Part shown: positions 33,112-44,689 of the stretch, in pieces
How the letters are laid out: the number at the start of each line of letters is the position of its first letter
Position numbering within the stretch: position 1 is the first letter of the stretch
IMG/VR virus record: IMGVR_UViG_3300036766_001793
Coordinates: 62,001 to 126,000 of that record
Strand: one strand, 5' to 3'
Length of the DNA stretch: 64,000 bases
DNA from: a virus
Program-made: the position numbers and the translations under genes
Notes under the pieces: model-generated
Databases searched by the model: none
What the model saw: only the letters and a program-made list of their open reading frames with translations
What the model was told of the DNA's origin: nothing

Positions 33112-33186
33112 TGGCTCCGCCCGAGGGCATCGAACCCCCGCCATCCTGGTCCAACGCCAGGCGTGCTACCACTACACCAGGGCGGA
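33112..33186 (-). tRNA. tRNA-Gln(UUG)
   Basis: Cloverleaf with acceptor TCCGCCC/GGGCGGA, U1-A72, G73 (Gln identity features) and encoded CCA. Anticodon stem CCTGG/CCAGG encloses loop CGTTGGA, so anticodon UUG and G at position 33 in place of U. Confidence 0.8.
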
Positions 33187-33272
33187 GTCTGGCTCCATCG
33201 GATGGACTCGCACCACCGTGACATGTTTCAGAGACATGCATCCTACTGCTAGATGACGATGGAATGCCTGGG

Positions 33273-33701
33273 TCAGTCCCACATGGACGGGAGGGCGACC
33301 GCGAGCTCCACCAGGCACCACGCCGCGAAGCGCGCGCCGTAGAACTCCTCCTCGTCCTTCTCCGGGTCGGCCTGGGCCACTTTGTAGGCGACGATCCTGT
33401 CGTAGATCCCCTGGAGGCCCGGCACCTCGCCGTGGTAGGCGGCGAACGACTCGTCGTGCTTGCAGGCCCAGACGTAACCGCCGACGAACTGCTCGAGGAG
33501 GGAGAGGACCGTGCCCTCTGTGTCCCAGTAGTGGGGCACGTCCACGTGGATAGCCCTGAACGGGTTGTCCAGGTCGTGGGTCATGTGCCCACTGAGCTTC
33601 CGCTGGACTGCGTCGTGGACGCTTGCGAACCTGTCCTCGAAGGAGGACTTGCCCTGCGGGAGGGCGGACTGGTCTTTCTTCTTCTTCAGCTTGAGATCCA
33701 T
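33273..33701 (-). CDS. Hypothetical protein, 142 aa
   Basis: The product starts with a Lys-rich stretch and has a helical body (residues about 20-140), including DLDNPFRAIHVDVPHYWDTE and LSLLEQFVGGYVWACKHDE. I recognise no family. It is the first protein gene in the tRNA array, between tRNA-Gly(UCC) and tRNA-Gln(UUG). Confidence 0.6.
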   Translation of the reverse strand: MDLKLKKKKDQSALPQGKSSFEDRFASVHDAVQRKLSGHMTHDLDNPFRAIHVDVPHYWDTEGTVLSLLEQFVGGYVWACKHDESFAAYHGEVPGLQGIYDRIVAYKVAQADPEKDEEEFYGARFAAWCLVELAVALPSMWD

Positions 33702-33714
33702 GCCATGAGTGTAC

Positions 33715-33790
33715 TGGAGCCGCCTGCGGGGATCGAACCCGCCCCTCGCGGTCGGAGGCCGCGCGTACTAGACCATTATACTGAGGCGAC
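33715..33790 (-). tRNA. tRNA-Gly(UCC)
   Basis: Acceptor GTCGCCT/AGGCGGC, U73 (usual for Gly) and encoded CCA. Loop CCTCCGA gives anticodon UCC with C33 instead of U33. Position 8 is also C. Confidence 0.85.
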
Positions 33791-33796
33791 TGGCCA

Positions 33797-33904
33797 CTAC
33801 GGGAGCAGCACCCACTCCAGGACAACGTGCCCGCAGGCGCAGGTGCAGACGCGGATCATGTCGTCGAGCAGCGGCCCTATTGAGTAGGAATGCGAGTGGG
33901 CCAT
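33797..33904 (-). CDS. Small Cys-rich protein, 35 aa
   Basis: An ATG with GGAGG 5 nt upstream opens a 35-codon frame (MAHSHSYSIGPLLDDMI at the start) ending in RVCTCACGHVVLEWVLLP. The CxCxC...H cluster suggests metal binding. It ends 7 nt before tRNA-Gly(UCC) begins, so it uses the short spacer efficiently. Confidence 0.55.
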   Translation of the reverse strand: MAHSHSYSIGPLLDDMIRVCTCACGHVVLEWVLLP

Positions 33905-33923
33905 CTTGCCCTCCTTCCTGTCT

Positions 33924-33999
33924 TGGAGCGCCAGGCGGGTCTCGAACCCGCGACCTCCTGCTTGGGAAGCAGGCACACTGCCAACTGTGCTACTGGCGC
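33924..33999 (-). tRNA. tRNA-Gly(CCC)
   Basis: Acceptor GCGCCAG/CTGGCGC, U73 and encoded CCA. Stem CCTGC/GCAGG with loop TTCCCAA gives anticodon CCC. U33 is present. It is 1 nt from the next tRNA. Confidence 0.9.
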
Positions 34000-34000
34000 G

Positions 34001-34074
34001 TGGGGCCGGCGGGGGGACTCGAACCCTCGCTTGCTCTTTACGGGAGAGCCGTCCTGCCTCTGGACTACGCCGGC
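34001..34074 (-). tRNA. tRNA-Thr(CGU)
   Basis: Acceptor GCCGGCG/CGCCGGC, C73 and encoded CCA. Stem GCTCT/AGAGC with loop CCCGTAA gives anticodon CGU. Position 33 is C, not U. Confidence 0.85.
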
Positions 34075-34146
34075 ACGCTTAAACTGAGACGTCTGGGCTC
34101 CGTCCGCCTTCGGTGGACTGATCAATCTTACATCTAGTGTATTTCT

Positions 34147-34220
34147 TGGAGCTGACTACGGGACTCGAACCCATGTTAGCATCTTACCAAGATGCCGTCC
34201 TGCCTCTAGACGAAGCCAGC
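34147..34220 (-). tRNA. tRNA-Thr(GGU)
   Basis: Acceptor GCTGGCT/AGTCAGC, U73 and encoded CCA. Stem GCATC/GATGC with loop TTGGTAA gives anticodon GGU and a normal U33. Confidence 0.9.
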
Positions 34221-34221
34221 C

Positions 34222-34297
34222 TGGGGCCCTCGGCAGGGCTCGAACCTGCAGTGTCCCGCTTACAGGGCGGGCGCCGTGCCAGTTGGGCTACGAGGGC
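34222..34297 (-). tRNA. tRNA-Thr(UGU)
   Basis: Acceptor GCCCTCG/CGAGGGC with encoded CCA. Stem CCCGC/GCGGG with loop CCTGTAA gives anticodon UGU, with C33. It is 1 nt from tRNA-Thr(GGU). Confidence 0.85.
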
Positions 34298-34324
34298 GAT
34301 GGCGGGGGCGGCTGCCGAGCAGTC

Positions 34325-34855
34325 CTAGCGCCCCAGGGCTCGCATGGCGGCCCCCAGGACCCGTATCTGCTTCACGCAGTCGTCCTGCGCTACGTGGTCA
34401 GTCAGGCCAGCGCCGGCAGTCCTGTACGCGTCGCGGACGACCCCCTCCGGCACGAGCGAGAAGAGGGTCCTGAGGTCCCTGACCCCGCGGCGGCCCCAGG
34501 CCGGGGCGAGCCCGGCCTCGGCGAAACGCCTCGAAAGCATCACGGCGTCGTAGGTCGCGTGGCTCCACATGGCGGCGCACCCACTCCCGCGGTAGTACGC
34601 GTTGGCGAGGAGGAGGCCCTCCCTGAGCGGCACCCGGCCCTCGGCGCGGAACACCCCCGCGACCGCCTCAGGCGACTGCCGCAGCCACCAGAGCACGGTC
34701 TCGGTCGACGGCAGCCCACTGCACGTGAGCGGGTCGATGTCGATAGTGGCGCCCTGGAGCGGGAGGAAGTCGGCCGTGTCGAAGGCCACCATGCCCACCT
34801 GGACGAGCAGGTCATCCCCCAGGGCCTCGATGTCCACCATGCACTCTATCGCCAT
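34325..34855 (-). CDS. DEDDh 3'-5' exonuclease (Rv2179c-like)
   Basis: The 176-residue product has the three exonuclease motifs: Exo I MVDIEALGDD (Asp and Glu), Exo II WSHATYDAVML (the conserved Asp), and Exo III LTDHVAQDDCVKQI with the His and last Asp. The order and spacing match DEDDh exonucleases of the compact Rv2179c type that trim RNA or DNA ends. Its place inside a tRNA array suggests a role in tRNA 3'-end or RNA processing, which is inference. A second exonuclease of the same kind is cut by the right edge. Confidence 0.75.
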   Translation of the reverse strand: MAIECMVDIEALGDDLLVQVGMVAFDTADFLPLQGATIDIDPLTCSGLPSTETVLWWLRQSPEAVAGVFRAEGRVPLREGLLLANAYYRGSGCAAMWSHATYDAVMLSRRFAEAGLAPAWGRRGVRDLRTLFSLVPEGVVRDAYRTAGAGLTDHVAQDDCVKQIRVLGAAMRALGR

Positions 34856-34868
34856 GGGCCTCTCCTTC

Positions 34869-34942
34869 TGGTAGGGCCGGGCGGAGTCGAACCGCCGTTT
34901 GGTGTTTATGAGTCACCCGCACTGCCGCTGTGCTACGGCCCC
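34869..34942 (-). tRNA. tRNA-Met(CAU), elongator type
   Basis: Acceptor GGGGCCG/CGGCCCT, A73 and encoded CCA. Loop CTCATAA gives anticodon CAU. The anticodon stem ends in an A31.A39 mismatch. It lacks the GGG/CCC stem of the initiator; a tRNA-Ile2 that becomes lysidine-modified cannot be excluded. Confidence 0.8.
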
Positions 34943-35153
34943 GCAGACCACAGGCCGGATCCGGCCAGCCGCTCCTTCCAGAACCTCATGGACGGGGGAG
35001 GCCTTCCTCGGGTCGTACTCGCTCGCGTGGCCGGCCTCATGGATGAACTGGCTCTCCACGACGTAGGCTGTCCCCCTGCCGCGCCCTCCTCACCATCCAG
35101 TGGGGAACGCCGCACGAGCACTCGTTCACCTCGGCGTCTGGGCCGTAGGCCAC
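34913..35153 (-). pseudogene. Frameshifted small zinc-binding-like ORF
   Basis: A GTG at 35153 opens a frame with NECSCGVPHWMVRRARQG, which stops after 38 codons (35037). Another frame continues the protein-like sequence: AYVVESQFIHEAGHASEYDP. The two join if one G of the G5 run at 35072-35076 is removed. The joined frame would end inside tRNA-Met. A sequencing error, true decay or frameshifting could explain this. Confidence 0.4.
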
Positions 35154-35167
35154 GGCACCAGCATACC

Positions 35168-35241
35168 TGGTCGGCCGGCCGAGAATTGAACTCGGATCAA
35201 GGGTTTATAAGACCCCCGTTCTTCCATTGAACTACCGGCCA
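35168..35241 (-). tRNA. tRNA-Ile(UAU)
   Basis: Acceptor TGGCCGG/CCGGCCG, A73 and encoded CCA. Stem GGGGT/ACCCT with loop CTTATAA gives anticodon UAU, which reads AUA. U33 is present. Confidence 0.85.
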
Positions 35242-35246
35242 GTTCC

Positions 35247-35321
35247 TGGTCCCCCCGGAGTGAGTCGAACACTCGTTGCCGGTATATCAGACCGGCGCCC
35301 TGGCCGTTGGACGACGGGGGG
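35247..35321 (-). tRNA. tRNA-Ile(GAU)
   Basis: Acceptor CCCCCCG/CGGGGGG, A73 and encoded CCA. Stem CCGGT/ACCGG with loop CTGATAT gives anticodon GAU. It is 5 nt from tRNA-Ile(UAU). Confidence 0.88.
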
Positions 35322-35399
35322 ACGGGTGCCGCCCGGCGGGCCCGAACCGCCTCGCCCTCGCGGGCTTCGTCCATGGGTGCGCTTCCCCGGCGGCGCCTG

Positions 35400-35487
35400 T
35401 GGCGGAGGGCGGGCGACTCGAACGCCAGCGGCTCGCGCCGCCCGTCGGTTTAGCAGACCGCGCCAGGTCCACCCTGGTTCACCCTCC
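35400..35487 (-). tRNA. tRNA-Ser(GCU)
   Basis: Class II tRNA of 88 nt with long variable arm (CGGGCGGCGCGAGCCGCTGG), G73 and encoded CCA. Loop CTGCTAA gives anticodon GCU. Confidence 0.88.
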
Positions 35488-35856
35488 GCGCGGCGGGAGC
35501 CCGTGCCCCTTCCTTATCTCTTCTATCGTCTTTCTGGCGACGCCGGAAAGTTCCGCTTCCTTGAGAGCCCCGAGGGCCTCCCTGATGAAGTGGCCCTGCT
35601 CCGAGGTCCCATCGAGAATGGCCCTAGCCTCCTCCATCGGCGTCCACTCCGGCTCAGGCCTGTGGGCCGGCTGGCCGCTCCCCGTCCTGCCGCTCGCCAC
35701 GATCTGGCTGGCCGACCCGGCCATGAACACCGCCTCGTCGCGGGTGTCCCCGTAAGTCACGATGGAGAACTCCCTGTCCCAGGCTACCCAGTGAGTCCCG
35801 CCGCCATTCTGGTGGCCCGGCGGGTTGGGCCTCTCAACCACGCAGAGTCTGTCCAT
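35479..35856 (-). CDS. Hypothetical protein, 125 aa
   Basis: The first third (REFSIVTYGDTRDEAVFMAG) resembles the strand-helix unit of HicB-like proteins, but no toxin partner is near and length and C-terminus do not clearly match. The rest is helical (HFIREALGALKEAELSG). It overlaps the 5' end of tRNA-Ser(GCU) by 9 nt at its stop. Confidence 0.55.
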   Translation of the reverse strand: MDRLCVVERPNPPGHQNGGGTHWVAWDREFSIVTYGDTRDEAVFMAGSASQIVASGRTGSGQPAHRPEPEWTPMEEARAILDGTSEQGHFIREALGALKEAELSGVARKTIEEIRKGHGLPPRGG

Positions 35857-35875
35857 CCTGGGCCTCCCTTTCTTT

Positions 35876-35951
35876 TGGTGCGCCGGGCGGGACTCGAACC
35901 CGCGGTCACCTGCATGTCGAGCAGGGGCCCTGGCCGCTGGGCGACCGGCGC
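35876..35951 (-). tRNA. tRNA-Val(GAC)
   Basis: Acceptor GCGCCGG/CCGGCGC, A73 and encoded CCA. Stem CCTGC/GCAGG with loop TCGACAT gives anticodon GAC. Position 33 is C. Confidence 0.85.
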
Positions 35952-35954
35952 GTC

Positions 35955-36029
35955 TGGTGCCGCCCGCCGGAGTCGAACCGGCGCACCCTGGGCTTCAACC
36001 AGGAGCTCTTCCAACTGAGCTAGGGCGGC
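35955..36029 (-). tRNA. tRNA-Phe(GAA)
   Basis: Acceptor GCCGCCC/GGGCGGC, A73 and encoded CCA. Stem CCTGG/CCAGG with loop TTGAAGC gives anticodon GAA. Confidence 0.9.
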
Positions 36030-36032
36030 GTT

Positions 36033-36109
36033 TGGTAGCGTGGGGGAGGAATCGAACCTCCCGACCTCCGGGTTATGAGCCCGGTGAGCTGCCACTGCTC
36101 CACCTCGCG
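36033..36109 (-). tRNA. tRNA-fMet(CAU), initiator
   Basis: The 77-nt RNA closely follows bacterial initiator tRNA: it begins CGCGAGGTGGAGCAG, position 1-72 is an unpaired C.U, and the anticodon stem CCGGG/CCCGG holds the three G-C pairs typical of initiators, with loop CTCATAA. A73 and CCA are encoded. Confidence 0.92.
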
Positions 36110-36151
36110 TGACTGAGTGCGCCGGGTCCGGCGCCAGGCAGGAAGCGTCTT

Positions 36152-36227
36152 TGGTGCCCCCGGAGGGAGTCGAGCCCTCAACCTGCGGTTTAAGAGACCG
36201 CTGCTCTGCCAGTTGAGCTACGGAAGC
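36152..36227 (-). tRNA. tRNA-Lys(CUU)
   Basis: Acceptor GCTTCCG/CGGGGGC (two G.U pairs), A73 and encoded CCA. Loop CTCTTAA gives anticodon CUU. The T-loop reads CTCGACT, so position 54 is C instead of U. Confidence 0.88.
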
Positions 36228-36236
36228 ACATTGGGA

Positions 36237-36563
36237 TCATGCCTCTTGAGGACCCGCGCCTCTTGGGGCCCAGCCCTCCGGCGAATCCCCGTAGGGGTGT
36301 CTCCACAGCCGCGGCGCCGCCCACCCCAGGTAGTCCCGCAGTCGCTCAACGTCGTCCCTGCCTAGGTTCACCTCGGCCTGGTGCACCTGCCGCCCGCGGA
36401 GCGCGCCCCACGCCAGCCTCGCCCGCGCCAGCGGTCCGCCCGCCTGGAAGTAGCCGCCGATCTCGAGGAAGGCGATGTCCTCCTTGTCGTGGTCCTCCGG
36501 CCACGTCGTCACGGAGACGAAGTGGTTGCCGTGGCAGTCGCACCTCAGGATGATCTCTTGCAT
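36237..36563 (-). CDS. Hypothetical protein, 108 aa, with CxC metal-binding motif
   Basis: The chosen ATG at 36563 is preceded by a G-rich ribosome site; the longer frame upstream runs through tRNA-Cys and is rejected. The product starts MQEIILRCDCHGNHFVSVTT and has helical segments (LARARLAWGALRGRQVHQAE, DDVERLRDYLG). I recognise no named family. Confidence 0.55.
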   Translation of the reverse strand: MQEIILRCDCHGNHFVSVTTWPEDHDKEDIAFLEIGGYFQAGGPLARARLAWGALRGRQVHQAEVNLGRDDVERLRDYLGWAAPRLWRHPYGDSPEGWAPRGAGPQEA

Positions 36564-36580
36564 GCCCCACCCGCCTTCTC

Positions 36581-36655
36581 TGGAGTCCCCTGCCGGAGTC
36601 GAACCGGCCCCTGGGAGGTTGCAGCTCCCCGTCTTCGCCACTCGACCAAGGGGAC
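36581..36655 (-). tRNA. tRNA-Cys(GCA)
   Basis: Acceptor GTCCCCT/AGGGGAC, U73 (a Cys identity base) and encoded CCA. Stem GGGAG/CTCCC with loop CTGCAAC gives anticodon GCA. Confidence 0.9.
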
Positions 36656-36660
36656 GCGTT

Positions 36661-36736
36661 TGGTGCCCGCGGGGGGATTCGAGCCCCCACGCACCCCGTC
36701 TTAAGCGGGGCGGCTTTTCCGTTTGCCTACGCGGGC
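36661..36736 (-). tRNA. tRNA-Leu(UAA) with short variable arm
   Basis: Acceptor GCCCGCG/CGCGGGC, A73 and encoded CCA; stem CCCCG/CGGGG with loop CTTAAGA gives anticodon UAA. The variable loop is only TGCGT (76 nt in all), unlike normal bacterial Leu tRNAs. Position 54 is C (CTCGAAT). Confidence 0.8.
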
Positions 36737-36743
36737 CTGGTCG

Positions 36744-36929
36744 CTAGGCCTCCTCTTTCCACGCCTTCTCGCAGCGGTAGCACATCGGCGCCTCCCTGAG
36801 GCGGGCGTCCTCCCGCCTGCCGCGGTCGATGAGGAAGTTGCAGAAGGTCAGGCCGTTGCGTGCCGACCCCTCCCGGTGGGCCGCCCTGCCCCTGTGGGTG
36901 AACACGCGCCAAGGCGCCTCGTTGGACAT
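36744..36929 (-). CDS. Small protein with CxxC motif, 61 aa
   Basis: The ATG at 36929 has AGGG upstream. The longer frame extends through tRNA-Leu(CAA) and is rejected. The product (MSNEAPWRVFTHRGRAAHRE at the start) ends CYRCEKAWKEEA, a minimal zinc-knuckle-like pair. It ends 8 nt before tRNA-Leu(UAA). Confidence 0.55.
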   Translation of the reverse strand: MSNEAPWRVFTHRGRAAHREGSARNGLTFCNFLIDRGRREDARLREAPMCYRCEKAWKEEA

Positions 36930-36954
36930 GCTGGGCCCTCCTACAGGCATTGTG

Positions 36955-37031
36955 TGGTCCGGCCGGCGGGAGTCGAACCCGCACCCACCGGGGCTTGAAC
37001 CCGGCGGCTTTGCCAATTTGCCTACGGCCGG
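36955..37031 (-). tRNA. tRNA-Leu(CAA) with short variable arm
   Basis: Acceptor CCGGCCG/CGGCCGG, A73 and encoded CCA. Stem CCGGG/CCCGG with loop TTCAAGC gives anticodon CAA. The variable loop is TGGGT, so the RNA (77 nt) is class I in form. Confidence 0.8.
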
Positions 37032-37207
37032 GGCTGGCAGCATTCCTCGGCGAGGCCCCGATTGAACCAGATCTTCACGCACTCCTGGCACTGCCAGAGG
37101 CATAGATAGAGCTGGGGCGGGCAGCATATCTGAGCCTCCCGCTGGTCGGCGTGCCACTTCCCGCATCCGTGGCACTCCCACGCCCTCGGGACCTCTTCTG
37201 CGTTCAT
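37022..37207 (-). CDS. Small zinc-ribbon-like protein, 61 aa
   Basis: The product has several Cys pairs (WECHGCGKWHADQREAQICC, then WQCQECVKIWFNRG), as in a small zinc ribbon that may bind RNA or DNA. Its UAG stop lies inside tRNA-Leu(CAA), at tRNA nucleotides 8-10, so the gene and tRNA overlap by 10 nt. Confidence 0.6.
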   Translation of the reverse strand: MNAEEVPRAWECHGCGKWHADQREAQICCPPQLYLCLWQCQECVKIWFNRGLAEECCQPRP

Positions 37208-37234
37208 GCCCAGATCCTACCGGGAGCGTTCCGT

Positions 37235-37310
37235 TGGTGCCGACGGAGGGATTCGAACCCCCAACACTTGCGGTCTGAACGCAAGGCCTCTGCCGTTGGG
37301 CTACGCCAGC
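37235..37310 (-). tRNA. tRNA-Leu(CAG) with short variable arm
   Basis: Acceptor GCTGGCG/CGTCGGC, A73 and encoded CCA. Stem TTGCG/CGCAA with loop TTCAGAC gives anticodon CAG. The variable loop is GTGTT (76 nt in all). Confidence 0.8.
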
Positions 37311-37792
37311 ACTTCTGCTCTCTTCCGATTCCCGAAGGTCTCGGTCTGAGAGTGGCAGTTTGGACACAGGAACCTGAGATTGCTCACGCGATCATCGTGC
37401 CTGTTGCCGTCCACATGATCTATCTGAAGGGTGAGTGGAACCCCTCTCCATTCGCCTGAGTTCCCGCATCCCTCACATTCCCACCGCCTCCCCAGCTCGA
37501 ATAGTGCTCTCCTTAGGAGGGCGGTCTGCTCGTATCGGCCGCCCTTTGGTTTCAGAGTCAAGATAAGCTCGGGGGTTTTCCTCTCCGGCCCTCCGCTGTG
37601 TTTAGCCCCACGTCCGCTGCCAGCCGACCCGGTGAAGTGGGAAGTATCAATCCCGAACTTACTGAGCAGCTTCTTGATGTGTGAGTGTTGACCACCACTC
37701 GGTGCCATCCCCATGGCCCTCAGGACACCGGAGACGGACTCATTCCCCTTGGTAGCCAATTCCAGTTCATCCCTGGAGTACGAATATCTCAT
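37301..37792 (-). CDS. HNH homing endonuclease
   Basis: The 163-residue product starts with a helix-turn-helix-like part (SVSGVLRAMGMAPSGGQHSH) typical of phage HNH endonucleases. It then has a zinc-binding HNH domain: CEGCGNSGEWRG, LQIDHVDGNRHDD, and VSNLRFLCPNCHSQT. The HNH residues are in IDHVDGN and NLRFLCPNC. Its stop is a UAG at nucleotides 8-10 of tRNA-Leu(CAG). It is coupled by a 4-nt overlap to the upstream Cys-rich gene. It may target a tRNA-array site. Confidence 0.85.
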   Translation of the reverse strand: MRYSYSRDELELATKGNESVSGVLRAMGMAPSGGQHSHIKKLLSKFGIDTSHFTGSAGSGRGAKHSGGPERKTPELILTLKPKGGRYEQTALLRRALFELGRRWECEGCGNSGEWRGVPLTLQIDHVDGNRHDDRVSNLRFLCPNCHSQTETFGNRKRAEVLA

Positions 37793-38016
37793 GACTTGAT
37801 GATCTGATTACCGGAACAGCTCGAGGCGCTCCGACCGAATATCATCCTGAAGCAGCCGCAGCATACATAGGGGGTCAGGTTATGCCTGCGCCTCCGCGGG
37901 TCGTCCCAGGCGATCTCCTCGCCGATCTTATGAACCGCCGGGTCGCAGCAGATCCTGCATGCCTCCCCGGCGACGGACCCAGAGATGAAGTGCAGCACGG
38001 CCACCCCCAGACGCAT
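37789..38016 (-). CDS. Cys-rich hypothetical protein, 75 aa
   Basis: Cys groups at CRICCDPAVHKIGEE and YVCCGCFRMIFG suggest a metal-binding fold. The AVHKIGEE phrase is also seen in small phage proteins of unknown role, as I recall it. It overlaps the HNH gene by 4 nt (ATGA). Confidence 0.55.
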   Translation of the reverse strand: MRLGVAVLHFISGSVAGEACRICCDPAVHKIGEEIAWDDPRRRRHNLTPYVCCGCFRMIFGRSASSCSGNQIIKS

Positions 38017-38020
38017 TCTA

Positions 38021-38095
38021 TGGCACCCTCGGCAGGAGTCGAACCCGCAACTCGACGTTCGAAGCGTCGCGTCCTGTCCGTTGGACTACGAGGGC
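38021..38095 (-). tRNA. tRNA-Arg(UCG)
   Basis: Acceptor GCCCTCG/CGAGGGT, G73 and encoded CCA. Stem CGACG/CGTCG with loop CTTCGAA gives anticodon UCG. Confidence 0.9.
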
Positions 38096-38223
38096 ATTTT
38101 CCTGGTGCAGGCCGGATCGTCCGACCGTCCGGGCCTGTGTTTCCCGGCGGTGGAGCGTCCCGTAGGGTGCCTCAGTCGCCAGCGCACGTCCCGCATGGCG
38201 CGCCACCCCGCCACATCCTGTCC

Positions 38224-38298
38224 TGGGGCCCCCGGCGGGAGTCGAACCCGCATTCTCGATTTAGAGGACCGGCGCCCTATCCATTGGACGACGGGGGC
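38224..38298 (-). tRNA. tRNA-Arg(UCU)
   Basis: Acceptor GCCCCCG/CGGGGGC with encoded CCA. Loop CCTCTAA gives anticodon UCU with C33. The anticodon stem has a C27.A43 mismatch that a C-to-U change would repair. Confidence 0.82.
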
Positions 38299-38303
38299 GC
38301 GAA

Positions 38304-38380
38304 TGGTAGGCCGGACGGGACTCGAACCCGTAAATCTCCTCCTTCGCAGGGAGGCGCCCTATCCGTTGGGCCACCGGCCT
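38304..38380 (-). tRNA. tRNA-Arg(GCG)
   Basis: Acceptor AGGCCGG/CCGGCCT, A73 and encoded CCA. Stem CCTCC/GGAGG with loop CTGCGAA gives anticodon GCG. The stop codon of the next gene overlaps its first two nucleotides. Confidence 0.9.
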
Positions 38381-39251
38381 ATGCCCTGTACCTGTTCTTC
38401 CCGGTCCCGCCCTCGTGGGCGATCCGGTGGTACTTCATGTACTCGCACGTCCAGTGCTCCACGGCGGAGAGGCCGAGCCTGCCTCGGCCCTCTGCCGCGA
38501 CCGACGCGAAGTCAAGCCCGAGCCCGCCGAGCGTCTCGTCCTGGAGGTCCCTGAGCTGGGCCATGCACGTCACGGCCTCCCCCGGGGTGACCCGCCTGCC
38601 GAACAGCACCCCAAGCCCGCCGAGCGCGCCTGGCCCCGCCAGGGCCCACTCGTCCACGGAGGCCTGGGTCGCCGGCCTGGGGCCGTACGTCAGGTCCTGC
38701 GCCATCTGGTACCCGAGGAAGTTCCCGACGCCCGGGAGGCACCTCATGTGCTCGAAGACGTCCTGGAGGTCGGTCATCCTCTCCAGCCTCTTGGCCAGCG
38801 GGCCGGCGACCGACACCACGACCGGGAGCGCCTCCACCACAGTCTTGAGCGAGGGGGTCATGTGCGCGCCGGTGAACAGAGGCCTCCCGCTCTGCCGGCG
38901 GGCGTCCATCCTCCCGGCGAGCCACCCCTGGTCGAGGGCCTCGAGCCTGAGGAACCTGCCGCCGGTGACCTCCTCCCAGGAGTCCCGGTTGTTGAGCTCG
39001 CGGTAGAGCCACACGTTGAACACCGTGTCCGGCGCCTCGGCCCCGTCCTCCGCCGCGTCGGCCATCGCCCTCACTAGCCTGACCGTGCCGGCGTCCAGCT
39101 CCCGGAAGACGTTGGTGAACCGCCACTCCAGGAAGACCGGGTCCTCGGTCCACGGCGCCGGGAGGCCGTCCGCCCGGCGGCGCCAGATCGCCTGGCGCTC
39201 GTGGGCCAGGCGGTAGAACTCGTCGAGCTTCTCCTGGACCGGCGGCTGCAT
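38379..39251 (-). CDS. Thymine-hypermodification-type protein (HMUDK_hel / aGPT pyrophosphorylase-like)
   Basis: The 290-residue product has at its N-terminus FYRLAHERQAIWRRRADG then LPAPWTEDPVFLEWRFTNVF RELD-like sequence, which matches the helical domain of 5-hydroxymethyl-dUMP DNA kinase and the alpha-glutamyl/putrescinyl thymine pyrophosphorylase families. A glycosylase-like helix-hairpin-helix (LPGVGNFLGYQMAQDL) follows near residues 176-191. These families act in making hypermodified thymines in phage DNA. The P-loop kinase that usually partners is not in the window. The assignment rests on recognised motifs; the modification itself is inferred. Confidence 0.7.
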   Translation of the reverse strand: MQPPVQEKLDEFYRLAHERQAIWRRRADGLPAPWTEDPVFLEWRFTNVFRELDAGTVRLVRAMADAAEDGAEAPDTVFNVWLYRELNNRDSWEEVTGGRFLRLEALDQGWLAGRMDARRQSGRPLFTGAHMTPSLKTVVEALPVVVSVAGPLAKRLERMTDLQDVFEHMRCLPGVGNFLGYQMAQDLTYGPRPATQASVDEWALAGPGALGGLGVLFGRRVTPGEAVTCMAQLRDLQDETLGGLGLDFASVAAEGRGRLGLSAVEHWTCEYMKYHRIAHEGGTGKNRYRA

Positions 39252-39260
39252 GCCGCTAGC

Positions 39261-39377
39261 CTACCGGCACCGGTCGCACAGGGCCACGAAGCTCGTGGCG
39301 TAGTAGTCCGCGTGCTTGACCTCGAGGGTGTCGTCGTCGTGTCGCCCCAGAATGAGGCAAAGGATCAGTTTCTTCAT
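39261..39377 (-). CDS. Small protein MKKLILCLILG..CDRC, 38 aa
   Basis: A short frame from ATG 39377 gives MKKLILCLILGRHDDD at the start and ends LCDRCR. Small phage proteins of this shape (MKKL...GRH...CxRC) are common and bind metal. The ribosome site is weak, so the start is uncertain. It lies 9 nt upstream of the hypermodification-type gene. Confidence 0.5.
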   Translation of the reverse strand: MKKLILCLILGRHDDDTLEVKHADYYATSFVALCDRCR

Positions 39378-39460
39378 GCTAGCCAGCATACCGCGCCCTC
39401 GCCCCGTTCCCGCTAGGGAGGTCCGCACGATTTGCCTATGCCACCTATCGTTCCCGTCTA

Positions 39461-39550
39461 TGGAGGAAGGCGCGGGACTCGAACCCGCACGCCGGCTCGC
39501 CGCCGGCCTCACCGCTTTCGAGGCGGCGTACCACTCCCTTGGGGCCTTCC
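39461..39550 (-). tRNA. tRNA-Ser(CGA)
   Basis: Class II RNA of 90 nt; acceptor GGAAGGC/GCCTTCC with encoded CCA. Stem CCGC/GCGG with loop CTCGAAA gives anticodon CGA. Position 8 is C. Confidence 0.87.
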
Positions 39551-39551
39551 G

Positions 39552-39704
39552 TTACTCCGCCCTGAACTCCCTGAGGTCCGCCTGCCTCAAGACCCGGCGA
39601 CCGCTCCTGCGCGCCAGCTTCTTGTCCGCCCTGCTGTTTTCGAAGCACTTCCAAAAGATGCACCCGGCGTGCTTCGCGGAGACCTTCTTGTAGACGTCCT
39701 GCAC
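39552..39704 (-). CDS. Small basic protein, 50 aa
   Basis: The GTG at 39704 opens a frame of 50 codons that ends 2 nt before tRNA-Ser(CGA). The product (MQDVYKKVSAKHAGCIFWKC at the start) is rich in Lys and Arg (SRADKKLARRSGRRVLRQAD), as in small nucleic-acid-binding proteins. No family is recognised. Confidence 0.45.
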   Translation of the reverse strand: MQDVYKKVSAKHAGCIFWKCFENSRADKKLARRSGRRVLRQADLREFRAE

Positions 39705-39716
39705 GCGCCCATCCTA

Positions 39717-39806
39717 TGGAGGAAGGGAGGGGAGTCGAACCCCCACGCCCCTCTCGGGGCAACCCGCTCTCAAGGCGGGCGCCGCCACCGTTCGGCTGGC
39801 CCTTCC
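39717..39806 (-). tRNA. tRNA-Ser(UGA)
   Basis: Class II RNA of 90 nt; acceptor GGAAGGG/CCCTTCC with encoded CCA. Stem CCCGC/GCGGG with loop CTTGAGA gives anticodon UGA. Position 8 is C. Confidence 0.88.
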
Positions 39807-39807
39807 G

Positions 39808-40206
39808 CTAGCCCCAGATGCTGGTGCGCCTCGGCATGTGCGGGCGTCCCGCCAGCTTCGTCCGGTCGAAGACGGGGAACACGAGCAACGGGCGCTCCGA
39901 CTGTGCCATCCCGTCCAGGAAGTACGCCTTCCAGATGTCGCCGCCGTCCTCGCCCAACCCGGTGAGTGTGATGAGCACCCCGGGGAGCTTGGCGGAGGCG
40001 GCGATCATGTCCTCCTCCCACTGGTACCACTTCAACTCGCTGGACGACCACCCGTCCCGGTCGAAGATCTCCTCCCCGAGGGCGGCGTGCAGTGCCTCAA
40101 TGTAGTCGGCCCTCGGCGCCTGCAACGGGAGGAGCGACGTGTGCCCGTCGAGCTCTTGGTCCGTGAGCGGCCTCAGCTCCACCCTGAACTGCGTGTGATA
40201 GCCCAT
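39808..40206 (-). CDS. Hypothetical protein, 132 aa
   Basis: The ATG at 40206 gives MGYHTQFRVELRPLTDQELD; the longer frame runs through tRNA-Ser(GGA) and is rejected. GGAG lies about 7 nt before the ATG. The middle (WSSSELKWYQWEEDMIAASA then LPGVLITLTGLGEDGGDIWK) has the pattern of a widespread small phage/bacterial protein with a strand-rich body and an EDGGDIWK motif; function unknown. Confidence 0.6.
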   Translation of the reverse strand: MGYHTQFRVELRPLTDQELDGHTSLLPLQAPRADYIEALHAALGEEIFDRDGWSSSELKWYQWEEDMIAASAKLPGVLITLTGLGEDGGDIWKAYFLDGMAQSERPLLVFPVFDRTKLAGRPHMPRRTSIWG

Positions 40207-40220
40207 AGCTCGTCTCCTTG

Positions 40221-40313
40221 TGGAGGAAGGTAAGGGGTTCGAACCCTTGGGCCGCGCAAACCGCGACCACGCGCTTTCCAAGCGCGCCCGATAATCCCCT
40301 CCGGCAACCTTCC
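40221..40313 (-). tRNA. tRNA-Ser(GGA)
   Basis: Class II RNA of 93 nt; acceptor GGAAGGT/ACCTTCC with encoded CCA and variable arm GTCGCGGTTTGCGCGGC. Stem CGCGC/GCGCG with loop TTGGAAA gives anticodon GGA. Confidence 0.9.
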
Positions 40314-40314
40314 A

Positions 40315-40533
40315 TCAGCGGCGGATCACGTGCCCGAAGTGCCAGTACCCGCACCCGTGCAGGTAGGCGGCCATCCCCGGGTTCTCGAAGACGGCCATGG
40401 CCGCCTCAGCGTCCTCTCGGACGTAGTAGCACCTCTTGTTGGCCTGGTCGCAGAGTATCCGACCGCCCTTGGCCACGTAGGCCTTGGGCTCGTCGTTGAT
40501 CCTACCGGGCCTGAGGTAGAACTCGATAGACAT
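40315..40533 (-). CDS. Hypothetical protein, 72 aa
   Basis: The ATG at 40533 is chosen because the longer frame runs through tRNA-Ala. The product starts MSIEFYLRPGRINDEPKAYV and ends CGYWHFGHVIRR. It ends 1 nt before tRNA-Ser(GGA). No family is recognised. Confidence 0.5.
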   Translation of the reverse strand: MSIEFYLRPGRINDEPKAYVAKGGRILCDQANKRCYYVREDAEAAMAVFENPGMAAYLHGCGYWHFGHVIRR

Positions 40534-40554
40534 GCGGACATGGTACCGAGATGC

Positions 40555-40629
40555 TGGTGGATCTGGCGAGAGTCGAACTCGCATTCCCTCGTTGCGACGG
40601 AGGTGTTCTCCCATTGCCACTACAGACCC
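40555..40629 (-). tRNA. tRNA-Ala(CGC)
   Basis: Acceptor GGGTCTG/CAGATCC holds the G3.U70 pair that defines Ala tRNAs; A73 and CCA are encoded. Loop GTCGCAA gives anticodon CGC; the last pair of the anticodon stem is a C.C mismatch. Confidence 0.85.
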
Positions 40630-40862
40630 AACTTGGAGGCTCTCCACTTCCTCATGGAGAGTTTGTGGCACTCGCGGCACTTGCGCTTCTCCACCCGACC
40701 ATCAGCTGGACTGGCCTGCGTCTGGCGGTGCGCTCCGCGTGTAAGGCGGCCGCCTTCGCATTCCCCCAAACTCGAGAACCAGGTCGCAGTGATCAATCCG
40801 CGCCTGGTTGCTTCTGCGAGCGGTTTTGTGCCCTGGCAACGCCCCGAGGGACGTTTGGCCAT
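40620..40862 (-). CDS. Small Cys-containing protein, 80 aa
   Basis: The product starts MAKRPSGRCQGTKPLAEATR and ends with a zinc-knuckle-like CRECHKLSMRKWRASK. Its UAG stop is formed by nucleotides 8-10 of tRNA-Ala. Function is unknown; nucleic-acid binding is plausible from the Arg/Lys and Cys content. Confidence 0.45.
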   Translation of the reverse strand: MAKRPSGRCQGTKPLAEATRRGLITATWFSSLGECEGGRLTRGAHRQTQASPADGRVEKRKCRECHKLSMRKWRASKLGL

Positions 40863-40883
40863 GCAGTTTCCACCGTTCTCCTA

Positions 40884-40959
40884 TGGTCCCTCGTACCGGA
40901 GTCGAACCGGTCGTCTCCTACTCGACAGGCAGGCATGTTGGCCGATACACCAACGAGGG
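40884..40959 (-). tRNA. tRNA-Asp(GUC)
   Basis: Acceptor CCCTCGT/ACGAGGG, A73 and encoded CCA. Stem CCTGC/GTAGG with loop CTGTCGA gives anticodon GUC. Confidence 0.88.
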
Positions 40960-41088
40960 GTGTCCCGACGCCCTGCGGGGGCTTCCCCGCACTCCCCGGC
41001 CCGGCGGCCATCCCTTCGCGGGGGCGTTGCGATGCGCCGCTGGCTCGGCTAAGTCCCGGGCTGCGCCCTGGTATCCGGCGGCGGCCCC

Positions 41089-41919
41089 TTAGTCCGGGGC
41101 GTCGGTGCTGTGGTGCCGGCAGAGGGATTCGAACCCCCAATGCGCGGACGCGCCTGCTCTACAGGCAGGTGCCCTTCCTACTGGGCGTCGCCGGCGTGCT
41201 GCCCCACGATGGGGTTGCCCTGGCGGAACTCCGAGAAGGACCTGGCCCTCCCGTCGCCCCCTGGCCCCGAAGAGCTCGAGCGGCGCGAGGCCGGCGGCCG
41301 GCCTCGATGCGGCGCTGAGCCTCTGGTCCACCACCTGGCGTCCCCTGAGGTTGCTGTAGCTGGTCAGCAGGATCTCGCCCCCGGCGACGTGGGCCCTCTT
41401 GTTGCTCCTGGCCTCGCCCCGCCACTGGGAGGCCGCCCTGGCGTCCCTCGGGTCGAGGAACAGGGTCGCGTCGCTCCACGGGCCGCCGTCCCTGGAGGAC
41501 CGGCCGTCCTTGAAGGAGTACGACCCGCCCATCTTGGTCCTGAAGCCTGTCTCGCCACGCTGCAGGCGGCCAGGCTCCTGCGTCGCGCTTGGCCCGCCGC
41601 TGGGCGGCCCAGGGCTCCTGTGGGCGGCGGCCGAGCCACTGGGCAGCTGGTCGGGCCGGGCCGCCTCCGGTTTCGGCCGCCCCTGGCCGAACCGCTCACC
41701 GCGTTCCCCGTACCGTTTCGCCCACTCCTGCCTGGCCCGCTCGCCTATCGCCCTGCCTGGGTGGCCCCCTGCCGGGGCCTCGTAGTACCGCCCGCCCCTC
41801 GGGCCGACCTTGACGTCGGCGCCTGCCGGGGCTCTGCCCCTCCTGCCGAGGTGCACGCGGTTGACCTCGCCGGAGAGCGCGATGACTGAGTCCAGGGTGG
41901 AGGCGAGGTCCATCCGCAT
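41089..41919 (-). CDS. GPRGGR-module protein, apparently frameshifted near its C-terminus
   Basis: The 276-residue frame starts MRMDLASTLDSVIALSGEVN and carries the module GADVKVGPRGGRYYEAP at about residues 33-50. The rest is rich in Gly, Pro and Arg, with a coherent stretch to about residue 215 (SDATLFLDPRDARAASQW). After the G5 run at 41257-41261 the annotated frame becomes Arg-rich and runs through tRNA-Tyr. Removing one G gives a better end (SFSEFRQGNPIVGQHAGDAQ, stop UAG at 41178). So the true gene may end at 41178. Role unknown; probably virion-associated like its module-sharing relatives. Confidence 0.55.
   Translation of the reverse strand: MRMDLASTLDSVIALSGEVNRVHLGRRGRAPAGADVKVGPRGGRYYEAPAGGHPGRAIGERARQEWAKRYGERGERFGQGRPKPEAARPDQLPSGSAAAHRSPGPPSGGPSATQEPGRLQRGETGFRTKMGGSYSFKDGRSSRDGGPWSDATLFLDPRDARAASQWRGEARSNKRAHVAGGEILLTSYSNLRGRQVVDQRLSAASRPAAGLAPLELFGARGRREGQVLLGVPPGQPHRGAARRRRPVGRAPACRAGASAHWGFESLCRHHSTDAPD
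41111..41195 (-). tRNA. tRNA-Tyr(GUA)
   Basis: Class II RNA of 85 nt; acceptor GCCGGCG/TGCCGGC, A73 and encoded CCA, with variable arm CGCGTCCGCGC. Stem CCTGC/GCAGG with loop CTGTAGA gives anticodon GUA. Confidence 0.9.
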
Positions 41920-41960
41920 ACCATACCGCCGGCACCAACGGAATGGTACCCTTGTGCTGC

Positions 41961-42034
41961 TGGCTCCGGCGCAGGGAGTCGAACCCCGATGAACAGGTTA
42001 ACAGCCTGTCGTCTTACCCTTGGACGACGCCGGA
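41961..42034 (-). tRNA. tRNA-Asn(GUU)
   Basis: Acceptor TCCGGCG/CGCCGGA, G73 and encoded CCA. Stem ACAGG/CCTGT with loop CTGTTAA gives anticodon GUU. Confidence 0.9.
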
Positions 42035-42058
42035 ATGCATAGCTGACGCTGCTTTGAC

Positions 42059-42122
42059 GCGGGCCGTCCGTCTCGAGCGGACGCCTCCCCGAGGGGGTGT
42101 GCTGTCTTTACACCAGGCCTGC
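42059..42122 (-). pseudogene. tRNA remnant
   Basis: A 64-nt stretch keeps an acceptor-like stem (GCAGGCC with GGCCCGC, one A.C mismatch), a D-arm and a perfect T-stem with loop CTCGAGA. The anticodon arm has shrunk to CCCCCTCGGGG and no CCA follows. It reads as a decayed tRNA. Confidence 0.4.
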
Positions 42123-42125
42123 GCT

Positions 42126-42199
42126 TGGAACCCGCCGGCCGAGTCCAACGGCCACCTCCGGCCCCGCGGCCGGTGCGCTGACGCTACGCCAGACGGGTT
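42126..42199 (-). tRNA. tRNA-like gene, isotype uncertain
   Basis: Acceptor ACCCGTC/GGCGGGT, U73 and encoded CCA, with normal D- and T-stems (T-loop TTGGACT). The anticodon arm is one nucleotide short: CCGGC/GCCGG with a 6-nt loop CGCGGG. It may be a damaged gene or a base lost in a G run. Confidence 0.5.
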
Positions 42200-42203
42200 G
42201 CTT

Positions 42204-42290
42204 TGGTCGAAGAGGAGGGGGTCGAACCCTCACGCCCTTCCGGGCACAGGCCTCTCATGCCTGCGCGTATGCCGTTTCGCCACTCTCCGG
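42204..42290 (-). tRNA. tRNA-Leu(GAG), normal long variable arm
   Basis: Class II RNA of 87 nt; acceptor CGGAGAG/CTCTTCG, A73 and encoded CCA, variable arm TGCCCGGAAGGGCG. Stem CAGGC/GCCTG with loop ATGAGAG gives anticodon GAG. It contrasts with the three short-armed Leu tRNAs. Confidence 0.88.
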
Positions 42291-42365
42291 TTCTTGTGGG
42301 GGCGCGCTGAGCTCCAGTTGCTTTACGCCAGCGGCCCTGTGGGGCCTGTACCTCCCCCTGCTTGG

Positions 42366-42503
42366 CTATGCCCGGGAGCCGTCCTCCGACCCGGTGGTCG
42401 CCGGGCGCGGCGGGCCCTTGGGCCCAGACGGCCCCTGCGGGGACGCCTGGGTCTGCGGCTCCGGGGCCTTCGGTCTCTCGAGCACCTGCGTCTGGGCCGT
42501 CAT
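42366..42503 (-). CDS. Small Pro-rich protein, 45 aa
   Basis: The ATG overlaps the stop of the preceding 85-residue gene (ATGA). The product is Pro/Gln/Gly-rich (MTAQTQVLERPKAPEPQTQA at the start) and likely disordered. Translational coupling is the main support. Confidence 0.45.
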   Translation of the reverse strand: MTAQTQVLERPKAPEPQTQASPQGPSGPKGPPRPATTGSEDGSRA

Positions 42504-42757
42504 GCGGTCGCCGGCTTGGGCACGTTTCCGTACCAGCGCTCTATGACCTCCAGCGGGCGCCAGGCCTCTGCCGGGCACTCGGAGAACCCTTCCTGGGCCC
42601 GCCCGGTGAAGTTCACCCTCCGCTCGAGGCGGGCCGCCTGGAGCTCGGGGTACCTGTCGCAGTATTCGCAGGCCGCCGGCGCGTGGAGGACCTGCGCGTC
42701 GCAGTGCGGGAACGGCGCGTCGGAGTCGAACCCGTCGCGCTCCCTGGTGAATCTCAT
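42500..42757 (-). CDS. Hypothetical protein with CxxC, 85 aa
   Basis: The ATG at 42757 has AGGAG upstream. The product starts MRFTRERDGFDSDAPFPHCD and contains CEYCDRYPELQAARLERRVN, a zinc-knuckle-like pair. The longer frame reaches into tRNA-Lys(UUU) and is rejected. Function unknown. Confidence 0.55.
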   Translation of the reverse strand: MRFTRERDGFDSDAPFPHCDAQVLHAPAACEYCDRYPELQAARLERRVNFTGRAQEGFSECPAEAWRPLEVIERWYGNVPKPATA

Positions 42758-42778
42758 CTCGTGTTCTCCTACTCTTCT

Positions 42779-42853
42779 TGGTACCTCCGGCGGGATTCGA
42801 ACCTGCACTTCCTGGATTAAAAGTCCAGTACGCTGCCATTACGTCACAGAGGC
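42779..42853 (-). tRNA. tRNA-Lys(UUU)
   Basis: Acceptor GCCTCTG/CGGAGGT, A73 and encoded CCA. Stem CTGGA/TCCAG with loop CTTTTAA gives anticodon UUU. Confidence 0.9.
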
Positions 42854-42866
42854 ACCTTACACATTC

Positions 42867-42942
42867 TGGAGCGGCCGGCGGGGCTCGAACCCGCGGTCTC
42901 CGCCTTGGCGAGGCGGCGCGCTGCCAGCTGCGCCACGGCCGC
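42867..42942 (-). tRNA. tRNA-Gly(GCC)
   Basis: Acceptor GCGGCCG/CGGCCGC, U73 and encoded CCA. Stem CCGCC/GGCGG with loop TCGCCAA gives anticodon GCC with C33. Confidence 0.87.
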
Positions 42943-42944
42943 GA

Positions 42945-43003
42945 AGGGGGGGCGCATTGCGCCCCCGGTGGAATCCTACTCCGGGGACTGGCCCCGTTTC
43001 AGA
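42945..43003 (-). repeat. Two hairpins in a tRNA spacer
   Basis: The spacer before tRNA-Gly(GCC) holds a perfect hairpin (GGGGGCGC with GCGCCCCC) and, 12 nt further, CGGGG-CCAGT-CCCCG. The second has a loop like the C[C/T]AGTCA hairpins elsewhere in the array. No gene is seen here. Confidence 0.45.
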
Positions 43004-43082
43004 TTCGCTATTGCGGGGGACCGCCTGCCCCTTCCCCACGCACTCCGGCCCCCTCACCTGCGGGGCCGGCCCCGGACTTCCT

Positions 43083-43159
43083 TGGTCAGTGAGGAGGGAG
43101 TCGAACCCACGGCCTCTTCGTCCCGAACGAAGCGCTCTGCCAGACTGAGCTACACACTG
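43083..43159 (-). tRNA. tRNA-Pro(CGG)
   Basis: Acceptor CAGTGTG/CTCACTG with C1-G72 and A73 (Pro-like) and encoded CCA. Stem CTTCG/CGAAG with loop TTCGGGA gives anticodon CGG. Confidence 0.9.
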
Positions 43160-43286
43160 ACATTCTAGGCCGCCACGCGGCTGGTCACCAATTTTGGTTC
43201 GGCCCTCGCCAGGCCCAGCGGCGGTCAAGCCTCTGGCTCTCCCCGGGTCGGGCCTCCCCTCAACGACTGTCGACCGTCCGACCCGG

Positions 43287-43303
43287 CCCGGTGACTAGCC
43301 GAC
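43287..43303 (-). repeat. C[C/T]AGTCA-loop hairpin, copy 1
   Basis: On the minus strand GTCGGCTAGTCACCGGG forms a short stem around loop CTAGTCA. The motif GGCTAGTCACCG matches the other copies while stem bases differ. Confidence 0.5.
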
Positions 43304-43468
43304 ACCTGGTCCTGACAGCCTCACGTAGCCTAATCGGCAACGCCCGCTTCCCGCGCGCCGGTATGCCCTCTCGCTGGCCTCCGCCTGGCTGAGGCGCGCG
43401 ATCGGTCTTGGGAGGGGGCCGACCGCGCCGCGGCGGTCAACCCGCGAGGGCCGGCCCCCTCCCTCGGG

Positions 43469-43485
43469 GGCGGTGACTGGCCGCC
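43469..43485 (-). repeat. C[C/T]AGTCA-loop hairpin, copy 2
   Basis: On the minus strand GGCGG-CCAGTCA-CCGCC: a perfect 5-bp stem and 7-nt loop. The stem differs from copy 3 by compensating changes. Confidence 0.55.
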
Positions 43486-43518
43486 GTCCTCTCATCAGTC
43501 CGATCCTAATACAACCTT

Positions 43519-43592
43519 TGGTCAGGGAGGAGGGGGACGATCCCTCTCCACGCGGTCCCAAACCGCGAATGCAGCCCCTACACCACTCCCTG
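43519..43592 (-). tRNA. tRNA-Pro(UGG)
   Basis: Acceptor CAGGGAG/CTCCCTG, A73 and encoded CCA. Stem CGCGG/CCGCG with loop TTTGGGA gives anticodon UGG. The T-loop is unusual (ATCGTCC, A54). Confidence 0.87.
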
Positions 43593-43718
43593 GTTAGCGT
43601 CGCCCAGTCCTACTCCGATATGGCCATCTCTCAAAGAGTACCGAGCTCTCGGTTGGGCCGCCCGCCAGCATCTCCCGGGGGGCGGTCGTCCCTCAGCGCC
43701 TTTCGCCCTCTCCCCGGC

Positions 43719-43735
43719 GTCGGTGACTGGCCGAC
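43719..43735 (-). repeat. C[C/T]AGTCA-loop hairpin, copy 3
   Basis: On the minus strand GTCGG-CCAGTCA-CCGAC: a perfect 5-bp stem and 7-nt loop in the spacer before tRNA-Pro(UGG). Confidence 0.55.
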
Positions 43736-43761
43736 ACAGGTTACCGAGAGATCATCGCAAT

Positions 43762-43838
43762 TGGTCAAGCTGGCGGGGATCGAACCCACGGCCTCGTGAC
43801 CCCCAGTCACGCGCGCTGCCAAACTGCGCCACAGCCTG
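43762..43838 (-). tRNA. tRNA-Pro(GGG)
   Basis: Acceptor CAGGCTG/CAGCTTG, A73 and encoded CCA. Stem CGTGA/TCACG with loop CTGGGGG gives anticodon GGG. Confidence 0.9.
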
Positions 43839-44013
43839 ATGGCCCCGCGGCGCCAGGTTCGCCCCTGCAATCCCCCTCTTCGGGGGCCGGGGCCCTCCGG
43901 CCCTCGGGGCCGGCCTGGCGTGAAGGGAGTTACCGCCCGGCGGGGGGAGCTTGCCTTGCCACCCGCCGGGGGCCCGAGGTGGTCAGCGGACGGCAAGCCG
44001 CCCGCGGGGTTTC

Positions 44014-44087
44014 TGGGGTGCAGGACGGGATTCGAACCCGTATCAGCTGGGTCACAGCCGGCCGTTCTGCCCTTGAACTACCCGCAC
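44014..44087 (-). tRNA. tRNA-His(GUG)
   Basis: Acceptor GTGCGGG/CCTGCAC, C73 (His-like) and encoded CCA. Loop CTGTGAC gives anticodon GUG. The anticodon stem has a C29.A41 mismatch. The base before position 1 is T, so the G-1 needed for His charging is not encoded. Confidence 0.87.
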
Positions 44088-44188
44088 ATGGGGCCCCGTT
44101 GACTGCGGGCCCATTCCGCGACCGGCACGGAGCTCACACCGGCAGCTTGGCCTGGCCCTCGCGGACGCGTAGGAGGCTCTAAGGTGGA

Positions 44189-44262
44189 TGGTGGCCTCGA
44201 GGGGACTCGAACCCCTTCCTCGTCCTTGAGAGGGACGTGTCCTGCCGTTAGACCACGAGGCC
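44189..44262 (-). tRNA. tRNA-Glu(CUC)
   Basis: Acceptor GGCCTCG/CGAGGCC, A73 and encoded CCA. Stem CGTCC/GGACG with loop CTCTCAA gives anticodon CUC. Confidence 0.9.
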
Positions 44263-44299
44263 GCGGCCTGAGGCCGCGCTCTCGGCCTGGCTGGGTGGG

Positions 44300-44612: not shown

Positions 44613-44689
44613 ATCTGTCTGGCGGCGGGGATGGCGCCCCGCCGCGATCTGAAGGTTCCCGCTGAGACCAGCCCCGCGGGAAGTGACCC

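What the first reader, a model, noticed from the sequence alone, without database searches (positions are those of the whole stretch)
36661..37310. Three leucine-anticodon tRNAs with short variable arms, in a row
tRNA-Leu(UAA), (CAA) and (CAG) are 76-77 nt with 5-nt variable loops, while the array also holds a normal 87-nt tRNA-Leu(GAG). Bacterial Leu tRNAs normally have a long variable arm. All three keep A73, a Leu identity base. Short-armed Leu tRNAs are known in mitochondria. They may be charged by LeuRS despite the missing arm, charged with another amino acid, or serve another role.
Basis: partly seen in the sequence, partly recalled or inferred. Interest (0 to 1): 0.7.

Follow-up and report, generated by a model that had tools for sequence, protein, structure and literature searches.

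The report
Short-armed leucine tRNAs in a phage
This bacterial virus carries three leucine tRNAs that lack the long side arm of textbook bacterial leucine tRNAs, but such short-armed leucine tRNAs turn out to be common in viruses of bacteria and are even the only readers of two leucine codons in a Corynebacterium, so they are most likely ordinary working leucine tRNAs.

Summary
Three tRNA-Leu genes (UAA, CAA, CAG; 76-77 nt, 5-nt variable loops, A73, encoded CCA) lie on the minus strand of a 41-tRNA array in a 165-kb phage contig; tRNA-Leu(GAG) keeps a 15-nt arm. The surprise mostly disappears. In phage contigs chosen by an unrelated tRNA, 55 of 95 distinct tRNA-Leu genes are short-armed, and named cultured phages of Mycobacterium, Streptomyces, Gordonia, Bacillus, Myxococcus and Cronobacter carry them. 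Actinobacterial chromosomes do too: in one Corynebacterium draft genome, whose 50 tRNAs I listed, short-armed tRNA-Leu(UAA) and (CAA) are the only readers of UUA/UUG. The short class keeps the bacterial LeuRS identity set (A73, A15:U48, A20a, U8:A14) in 52/55 cases against 1/897 other class I phage tRNAs, and the three genes here have it. The sister phage has three short-armed Leu tRNAs at the same place, with 5-7 compensated stem changes each. Best explanation: ordinary leucine tRNAs charged by the host LeuRS, which in E. coli does not need the arm (PMC9976931). Charging with another amino acid or a non-decoding role has no support. Charging was not measured and the host is unknown. A new member of a known, little-discussed kind.

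The parts
36661..36736 (-). tRNA-Leu(UAA), 76 nt, 5-nt variable loop UGCGU, A73, CCA encoded; A15:U48, A20a, U8:A14; A13.A22 unpaired; G37
36955..37031 (-). tRNA-Leu(CAA), 77 nt, 5-nt variable loop UGGGU, A73, CCA encoded; A15:U48, A20a, U8:A14; A13.A22 unpaired; G37
37235..37310 (-). tRNA-Leu(CAG), 76 nt, 5-nt variable loop GUGUU, A73, CCA encoded; A15:U48, A20a, U8:A14; C13.A22 unpaired; A37
42204..42289 (-). tRNA-Leu(GAG), 86 nt, 15-nt long variable arm: the array's class II leucine tRNA
33112..45057 (-). array of 41 predicted tRNA genes covering all 20 amino acids, with intervening ORFs

Best explanation
The three genes encode working leucine tRNAs of a short-armed class that is widespread in phages and native to some actinobacterial chromosomes. 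They are processed as ordinary tRNAs (CCA is encoded), charged with leucine by the host's LeuRS, which reads A73 and the tRNA corner (A15:U48, A20a, G18G19, U8:A14) and not the variable arm, and they decode UUA/UUG, UUG and CUG as part of a near-complete phage tRNA set. Shown here: structure, conservation, identity elements, and the bacterial precedent. Inferred: expression, leucylation, and the benefit to the phage (probably independence from the host tRNA pool).
For: Literature: in E. coli the long arm's sequence and fold do not matter for leucylation, variants lacking it remain active, and A73, A15-U48, G18G19 and A20a are the key elements (PMC9976931 section 12). All three tRNAs carry that set. 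In phage contigs picked by a tRNA-Asn pattern, 52/55 short Leu tRNAs carry A73+A15+U48+A20a+U8+A14, against 35/38 long Leu and 1/897 other class I tRNAs. In all fetched loci, Ser arms are 193 long to 2 short and Tyr 85 long, 4 short, 1 intermediate, as expected if loss is tolerated mainly where the synthetase does not need the arm. A position-wise classifier blind to anticodon and variable loop recovers the short-Leu class (486/524; 4 false calls among 2643 non-Leu) and puts all three window genes in it. A Corynebacterium genome with 50 tRNAs has exactly one Leu(UAA) and one Leu(CAA), both short, so they should carry leucine for UUA/UUG to be read as Leu. The closest relative found (major capsid protein 79% identical) has short Leu(CAG), (CAA), (UAA) in the same array order, with 5-7 base pairs changed on both sides and at most one broken per tRNA.
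Against: No expression or charging data. The host is unknown, so its LeuRS was not examined. Trained only on long Leu, the whole-body classifier does not assign the three to Leu (Glu, His, Val, mostly by small margins; only 129/399 short Leu overall): apart from the identity positions the short class has its own body. G37 in UAA/CAA and A37 in CAG depart from the usual bacterial pattern and might alter modification.
Confidence: 0.88

Rival explanations
1. They are charged with a different amino acid and deliberately misread leucine codons.
For: A class I shape could be accepted by more synthetases; the body does not resemble long-armed Leu when only long Leu is used for training.
Against: No consistent donor isotype. 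No G3:U70 for AlaRS (pairs C3:G70, G3:C70, U3:G70). A73 and the Leu-specific A15:U48 plus A20a combination are conserved across the class. CUG is 33% of the phage's Leu codons, so wholesale misreading would scramble its own proteins.
Confidence: 0.03
2. The genes are silent, decaying or an assembly artefact after loss of the arm.
For: Phage tRNAs often decay; elsewhere in the array one predicted tRNA has a 6-nt anticodon loop (42126-42198).
Against: Three separate genes, complete stems, encoded CCA; same short arms in the sister phage with 5-7 compensated pair changes and at most one broken pair; the same class in hundreds of unrelated contigs.
Confidence: 0.05
3. The short arm is itself selected, to escape host tRNA-targeting toxins that grip the long arm, so that leucine decoding survives host defence.
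For: MenT3 of M. [quoted passage not shown] phage tRNAs carry anticodon-loop changes thought to evade nucleases (PMC10264068), and two of the three have an uncommon G37.
Against: Short-armed tRNA-Leu is also a chromosomal housekeeping tRNA in Actinobacteria, so no phage-specific pressure is needed; the array keeps a long-armed Leu(GAG) and long Ser arms.
Confidence: 0.04

Closest known systems
Chromosomal short-armed tRNA-Leu(UAA) and tRNA-Leu(CAA) of Actinobacteria (Corynebacterium, Nocardia, Mycobacterium, Gordonia and others)
   Same: 5-nt variable loop, A73, A15:U48, A20a, 13.22 unpaired; Leu anticodons
   Different: In Corynebacterium only UAA and CAA are short and CAG is long; in this phage CAG is short too. 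Bacterial copies have A37 (106 of 107), while the phage UAA/CAA have G37.
Short-armed tRNA-Leu of cultured phages (Mycobacterium phage Stubby, Streptomyces phages Samy and Wofford, Gordonia phage Phendrix, Bacillus phage P59, Myxococcus phage Mx1, Enterobacter phage phi63_307)
   Same: 5-nt variable loop and, in nearly all, the full identity set; Stubby has Leu(CAG), (GAG), (CAA) as three consecutive short-armed genes
   Different: Sequence only about 74-87% identical over most of the gene; the actinophage copies inspected lack encoded CCA.
Short variable-loop tRNA-Leu(TAG) of a mycobacterial tRNA gene cluster (PMC6582537)
   Same: Published remark that a cluster-encoded tRNA-Leu has a short variable loop while the isoacceptor elsewhere in the genome has a normal one
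   Different: Different anticodon; one example, no functional reading found in the passages shown.
Human mitochondrial tRNA-Leu(UUR)
   Same: Leucylated without a long arm; A73 and A14 essential (PMC9976931)
   Different: Charged by mitochondrial LeuRS; floppy anticodon arm; no evidence here of common descent with the phage tRNAs.

Membership tests
Class II (long-armed) bacterial tRNA-Leu | variable arm of 10 or more nt | tested here: not met
   5 nt in all three; Leu(GAG) of the same array has 15
Short-armed tRNA-Leu class of phages and Actinobacteria | Leu anticodon with a variable loop of 6 nt or fewer | tested here: met
Short-armed tRNA-Leu class of phages and Actinobacteria | A73, A15:U48, A20a, U8:A14 | tested here: met
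   all three; 52/55 of the class against 1/897 of other class I phage tRNAs
Short-armed tRNA-Leu class of phages and Actinobacteria | A9, C12:G23 and an unpaired 13.22 with A22 | tested here: met
   A9, C12, G23 and A22 in all three; class frequencies 0.91, 0.92, 0.93 and 0.98
Short-armed tRNA-Leu class of phages and Actinobacteria | charged with leucine in the cell | not testable with these tools
   needs a charging assay; inferred from PMC9976931 and from sole-reader tRNAs in Corynebacterium
tRNA-Ala by G3:U70 | G3:U70 in the acceptor stem | tested here: not met
   C3:G70, G3:C70, U3:G70
tRNA-Ser | long arm and G73 | tested here: not met
   5-nt loop, A73

The most novel reading that the evidence does not exclude
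Short arms in phage leucine tRNAs are selected as a shield: without the arm, the tRNAs are invisible to host toxins or processing enzymes that grip long-armed tRNAs, while LeuRS still charges them.
Probability: 0.06. Interest if true: 0.6.

Novelty: new member of a known kind. Interest (0 to 1): 0.3.

Why it matters
The individual genes are ordinary, but the survey gives a natural counterpart to the E. coli result that LeuRS ignores the variable arm: the arm is often absent in phage leucine tRNAs and almost never in serine tRNAs. 'Leucine tRNAs are class II' is not a safe rule for bacteria or phages, which matters for tRNA annotation, isotype prediction and orthogonal-tRNA design. I found only one paper in the library that mentions a short variable loop in such a tRNA.

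Tried and rejected
[quoted passage not shown] (2) Whole-body isotype classification trained without the short class: inconclusive; it works only when the short class is a class of its own. (3) A phage-encoded LeuRS: no PF00133 match in the 165-kb record. (4) Host identification: the capsid protein has no match in the phage collection; DNA polymerase and ribonucleotide reductase give only distant mixed matches; terminase region weak. Unresolved. (5) UUA/UUG/CUG bias as an explanation: CUC 55%, CUG 33%, UUG 3.0%, UUA 0.4% of 1349 Leu codons in 22 long minus-strand ORFs taken as genes; two of the three tRNAs read rare codons, so simple codon compensation is weak. (6) Promoter and terminator scan of the region: nothing clearly above chance. 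(7) The two apparent short-armed Ser tRNAs in the survey look like mis-assigned tRNA-His (loop UGUGAAG).

Full report
What is there. The window is bases 62001-126000 of a 165,484-base virus record. Its minus strand carries a 12-kb array of 41 predicted tRNA genes for all 20 amino acids. Three of the four leucine tRNAs are 76-77 nt with 5-nt variable loops; the fourth, Leu(GAG), has a 15-nt arm. Stems are complete, A73 and CCA are encoded, and Rfam scores are 49.6-63.6 bits against a 29-bit threshold, so these are not chance matches.

Is it unusual? BLAST of the three against 50,697 phage records finds hundreds of records, the best mostly annotated tRNA-Leu, in mycobacteriophages and Streptomyces, Gordonia and Enterobacteria phages. 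To avoid choosing by the answer, I scanned for tRNA-Asn instead and looked at the Leu tRNAs in the 93 newly fetched contig stretches: 55 short, 38 long, 2 intermediate among 95 distinct genes. This sample still favours tRNA-rich contigs. Across all fetched loci Ser tRNAs are long in 193 of 195 cases and Tyr in 85 of 90; the two short 'Ser' look like mis-assigned His. Named phages were checked directly: Stubby, Samy, Wofford, Phendrix, P59, Mx1, XD2 and phi63_307 all carry Leu tRNAs with 5-6-nt loops.

Bacterial chromosomes. With exact patterns, which undercount, 59 of 101 genomes of the order of a Corynebacterium genome have a short Leu(UAA) and 30 of 198 of its phylum a short UAA/CAA gene; the reversed pattern gave none. 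For that genome (G008; locus title Corynebacterium yonathiae, draft) I read all 50 tRNAs that Rfam finds: exactly one each of Leu CAA, CAG, GAG, UAA, UAG; CAA and UAA have 5-nt loops, the others 13-18 nt. A short-armed tRNA is therefore the only tRNA found for UUA and UUG in this bacterium and should be leucylated there. That is inference from gene content, not a measurement.

Identity elements. Reviewed experiments say that E. coli leucine identity rests on A73, the A15-U48 pair, G18G19 and A20a, that the long arm's sequence and fold do not matter, and that variants missing it stay active (PMC9976931). The window's three tRNAs have all of these. In the Asn-scan sample the set A73, A15, U48, A20a, U8, A14 occurs in 52/55 short Leu, 35/38 long Leu and 1/897 other class I tRNAs. 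The short class differs from long Leu at A9, C12, G23 and mostly C13, the part of the core that packs against the variable loop. A classifier without anticodon and variable loop recognises the class (486/524; 4 false positives of 2643 non-Leu) and assigns all three window genes to it, Leu(CAA) by a small margin. Trained on long Leu only, it does not, so the short class is not simply long Leu with the arm deleted.

Relatives. The closest relative found by the major capsid protein (79% identical) has an array in the same order with long Leu(GAG) and short Leu(CAG), (CAA), (UAA). Between the two phages, Leu(CAG), (CAA) and (UAA) have 7, 5 and 7 pairs changed on both sides with pairing kept, and 0, 1 and 0 broken pairs of 20. 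More distant relatives also carry short-armed Leu tRNAs. The UAA gene of the sister phage has a differently spaced D arm and may not be strictly orthologous.

Function. The conservative wobble rules used cover all but 6 sense codons and 90% of codons used. CUG is 33% of Leu codons and UUG plus UUA 3.4%. Codon compensation alone is therefore a poor reason for UAA and CAA; a self-sufficient tRNA set during host tRNA depletion fits better (PMC10264068 for the general idea), but this is inference. The phage record has no LeuRS-family gene, so charging must rely on the host enzyme.

Verdict. Real, but a member of a common and under-described class. Most likely leucine tRNAs charged by host LeuRS. 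Host, expression and charging are unknown.

Noticed in passing
window 36661-37031, also Phe, Tyr and Ser(UGA) tRNAs of the array: Five of nine A36 anticodon tRNAs have G37 instead of the usual A37 (phage survey 14%, bacterial survey 3%). May mean no i6A modification or evasion of anticodon-loop nucleases.
   Followed up: partly
whole phage record, 22 long minus-strand ORFs taken as genes: AGG is 50% of Arg codons and AUA 20% of Ile codons in a phage with 65-74% GC, unusual for high-GC bacteria; an Arg(GCG) tRNA is present.
   Followed up: no
L011:18504-18580 (record 58504-58580, outside the window): Predicted tRNA with an 8-nt anticodon loop (AUUUCAAC), possibly a frameshift or UGA-reading tRNA.
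   Followed up: no
window 42126-42198: Predicted tRNA with a 6-nt anticodon loop and an odd T loop (UUGGACU); isotype unclear.
   Followed up: no
window 36037-36110: tRNA-Met with GGG/CCC next to the anticodon loop and an apparent C1.U72 mismatch: looks like a phage-encoded initiator tRNA (read by eye).
   Followed up: no
window 38379-39251: Protein with a 5-hmdU DNA kinase helical domain (PF18723, E=4e-54) inside the tRNA array, suggesting hypermodified DNA.
   Followed up: no
L013:12162-14684: Terminase-like ORF (840 aa) with inserted HNH endonuclease matches and other inserted segments.
   Followed up: no
window about 37311-37792: ORF with an HNH-like motif (IDHVDGNRHDDRVSNLRFLCPNCH) directly upstream of tRNA-Leu(CAG) on the minus strand (motif read by eye).
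   Followed up: no
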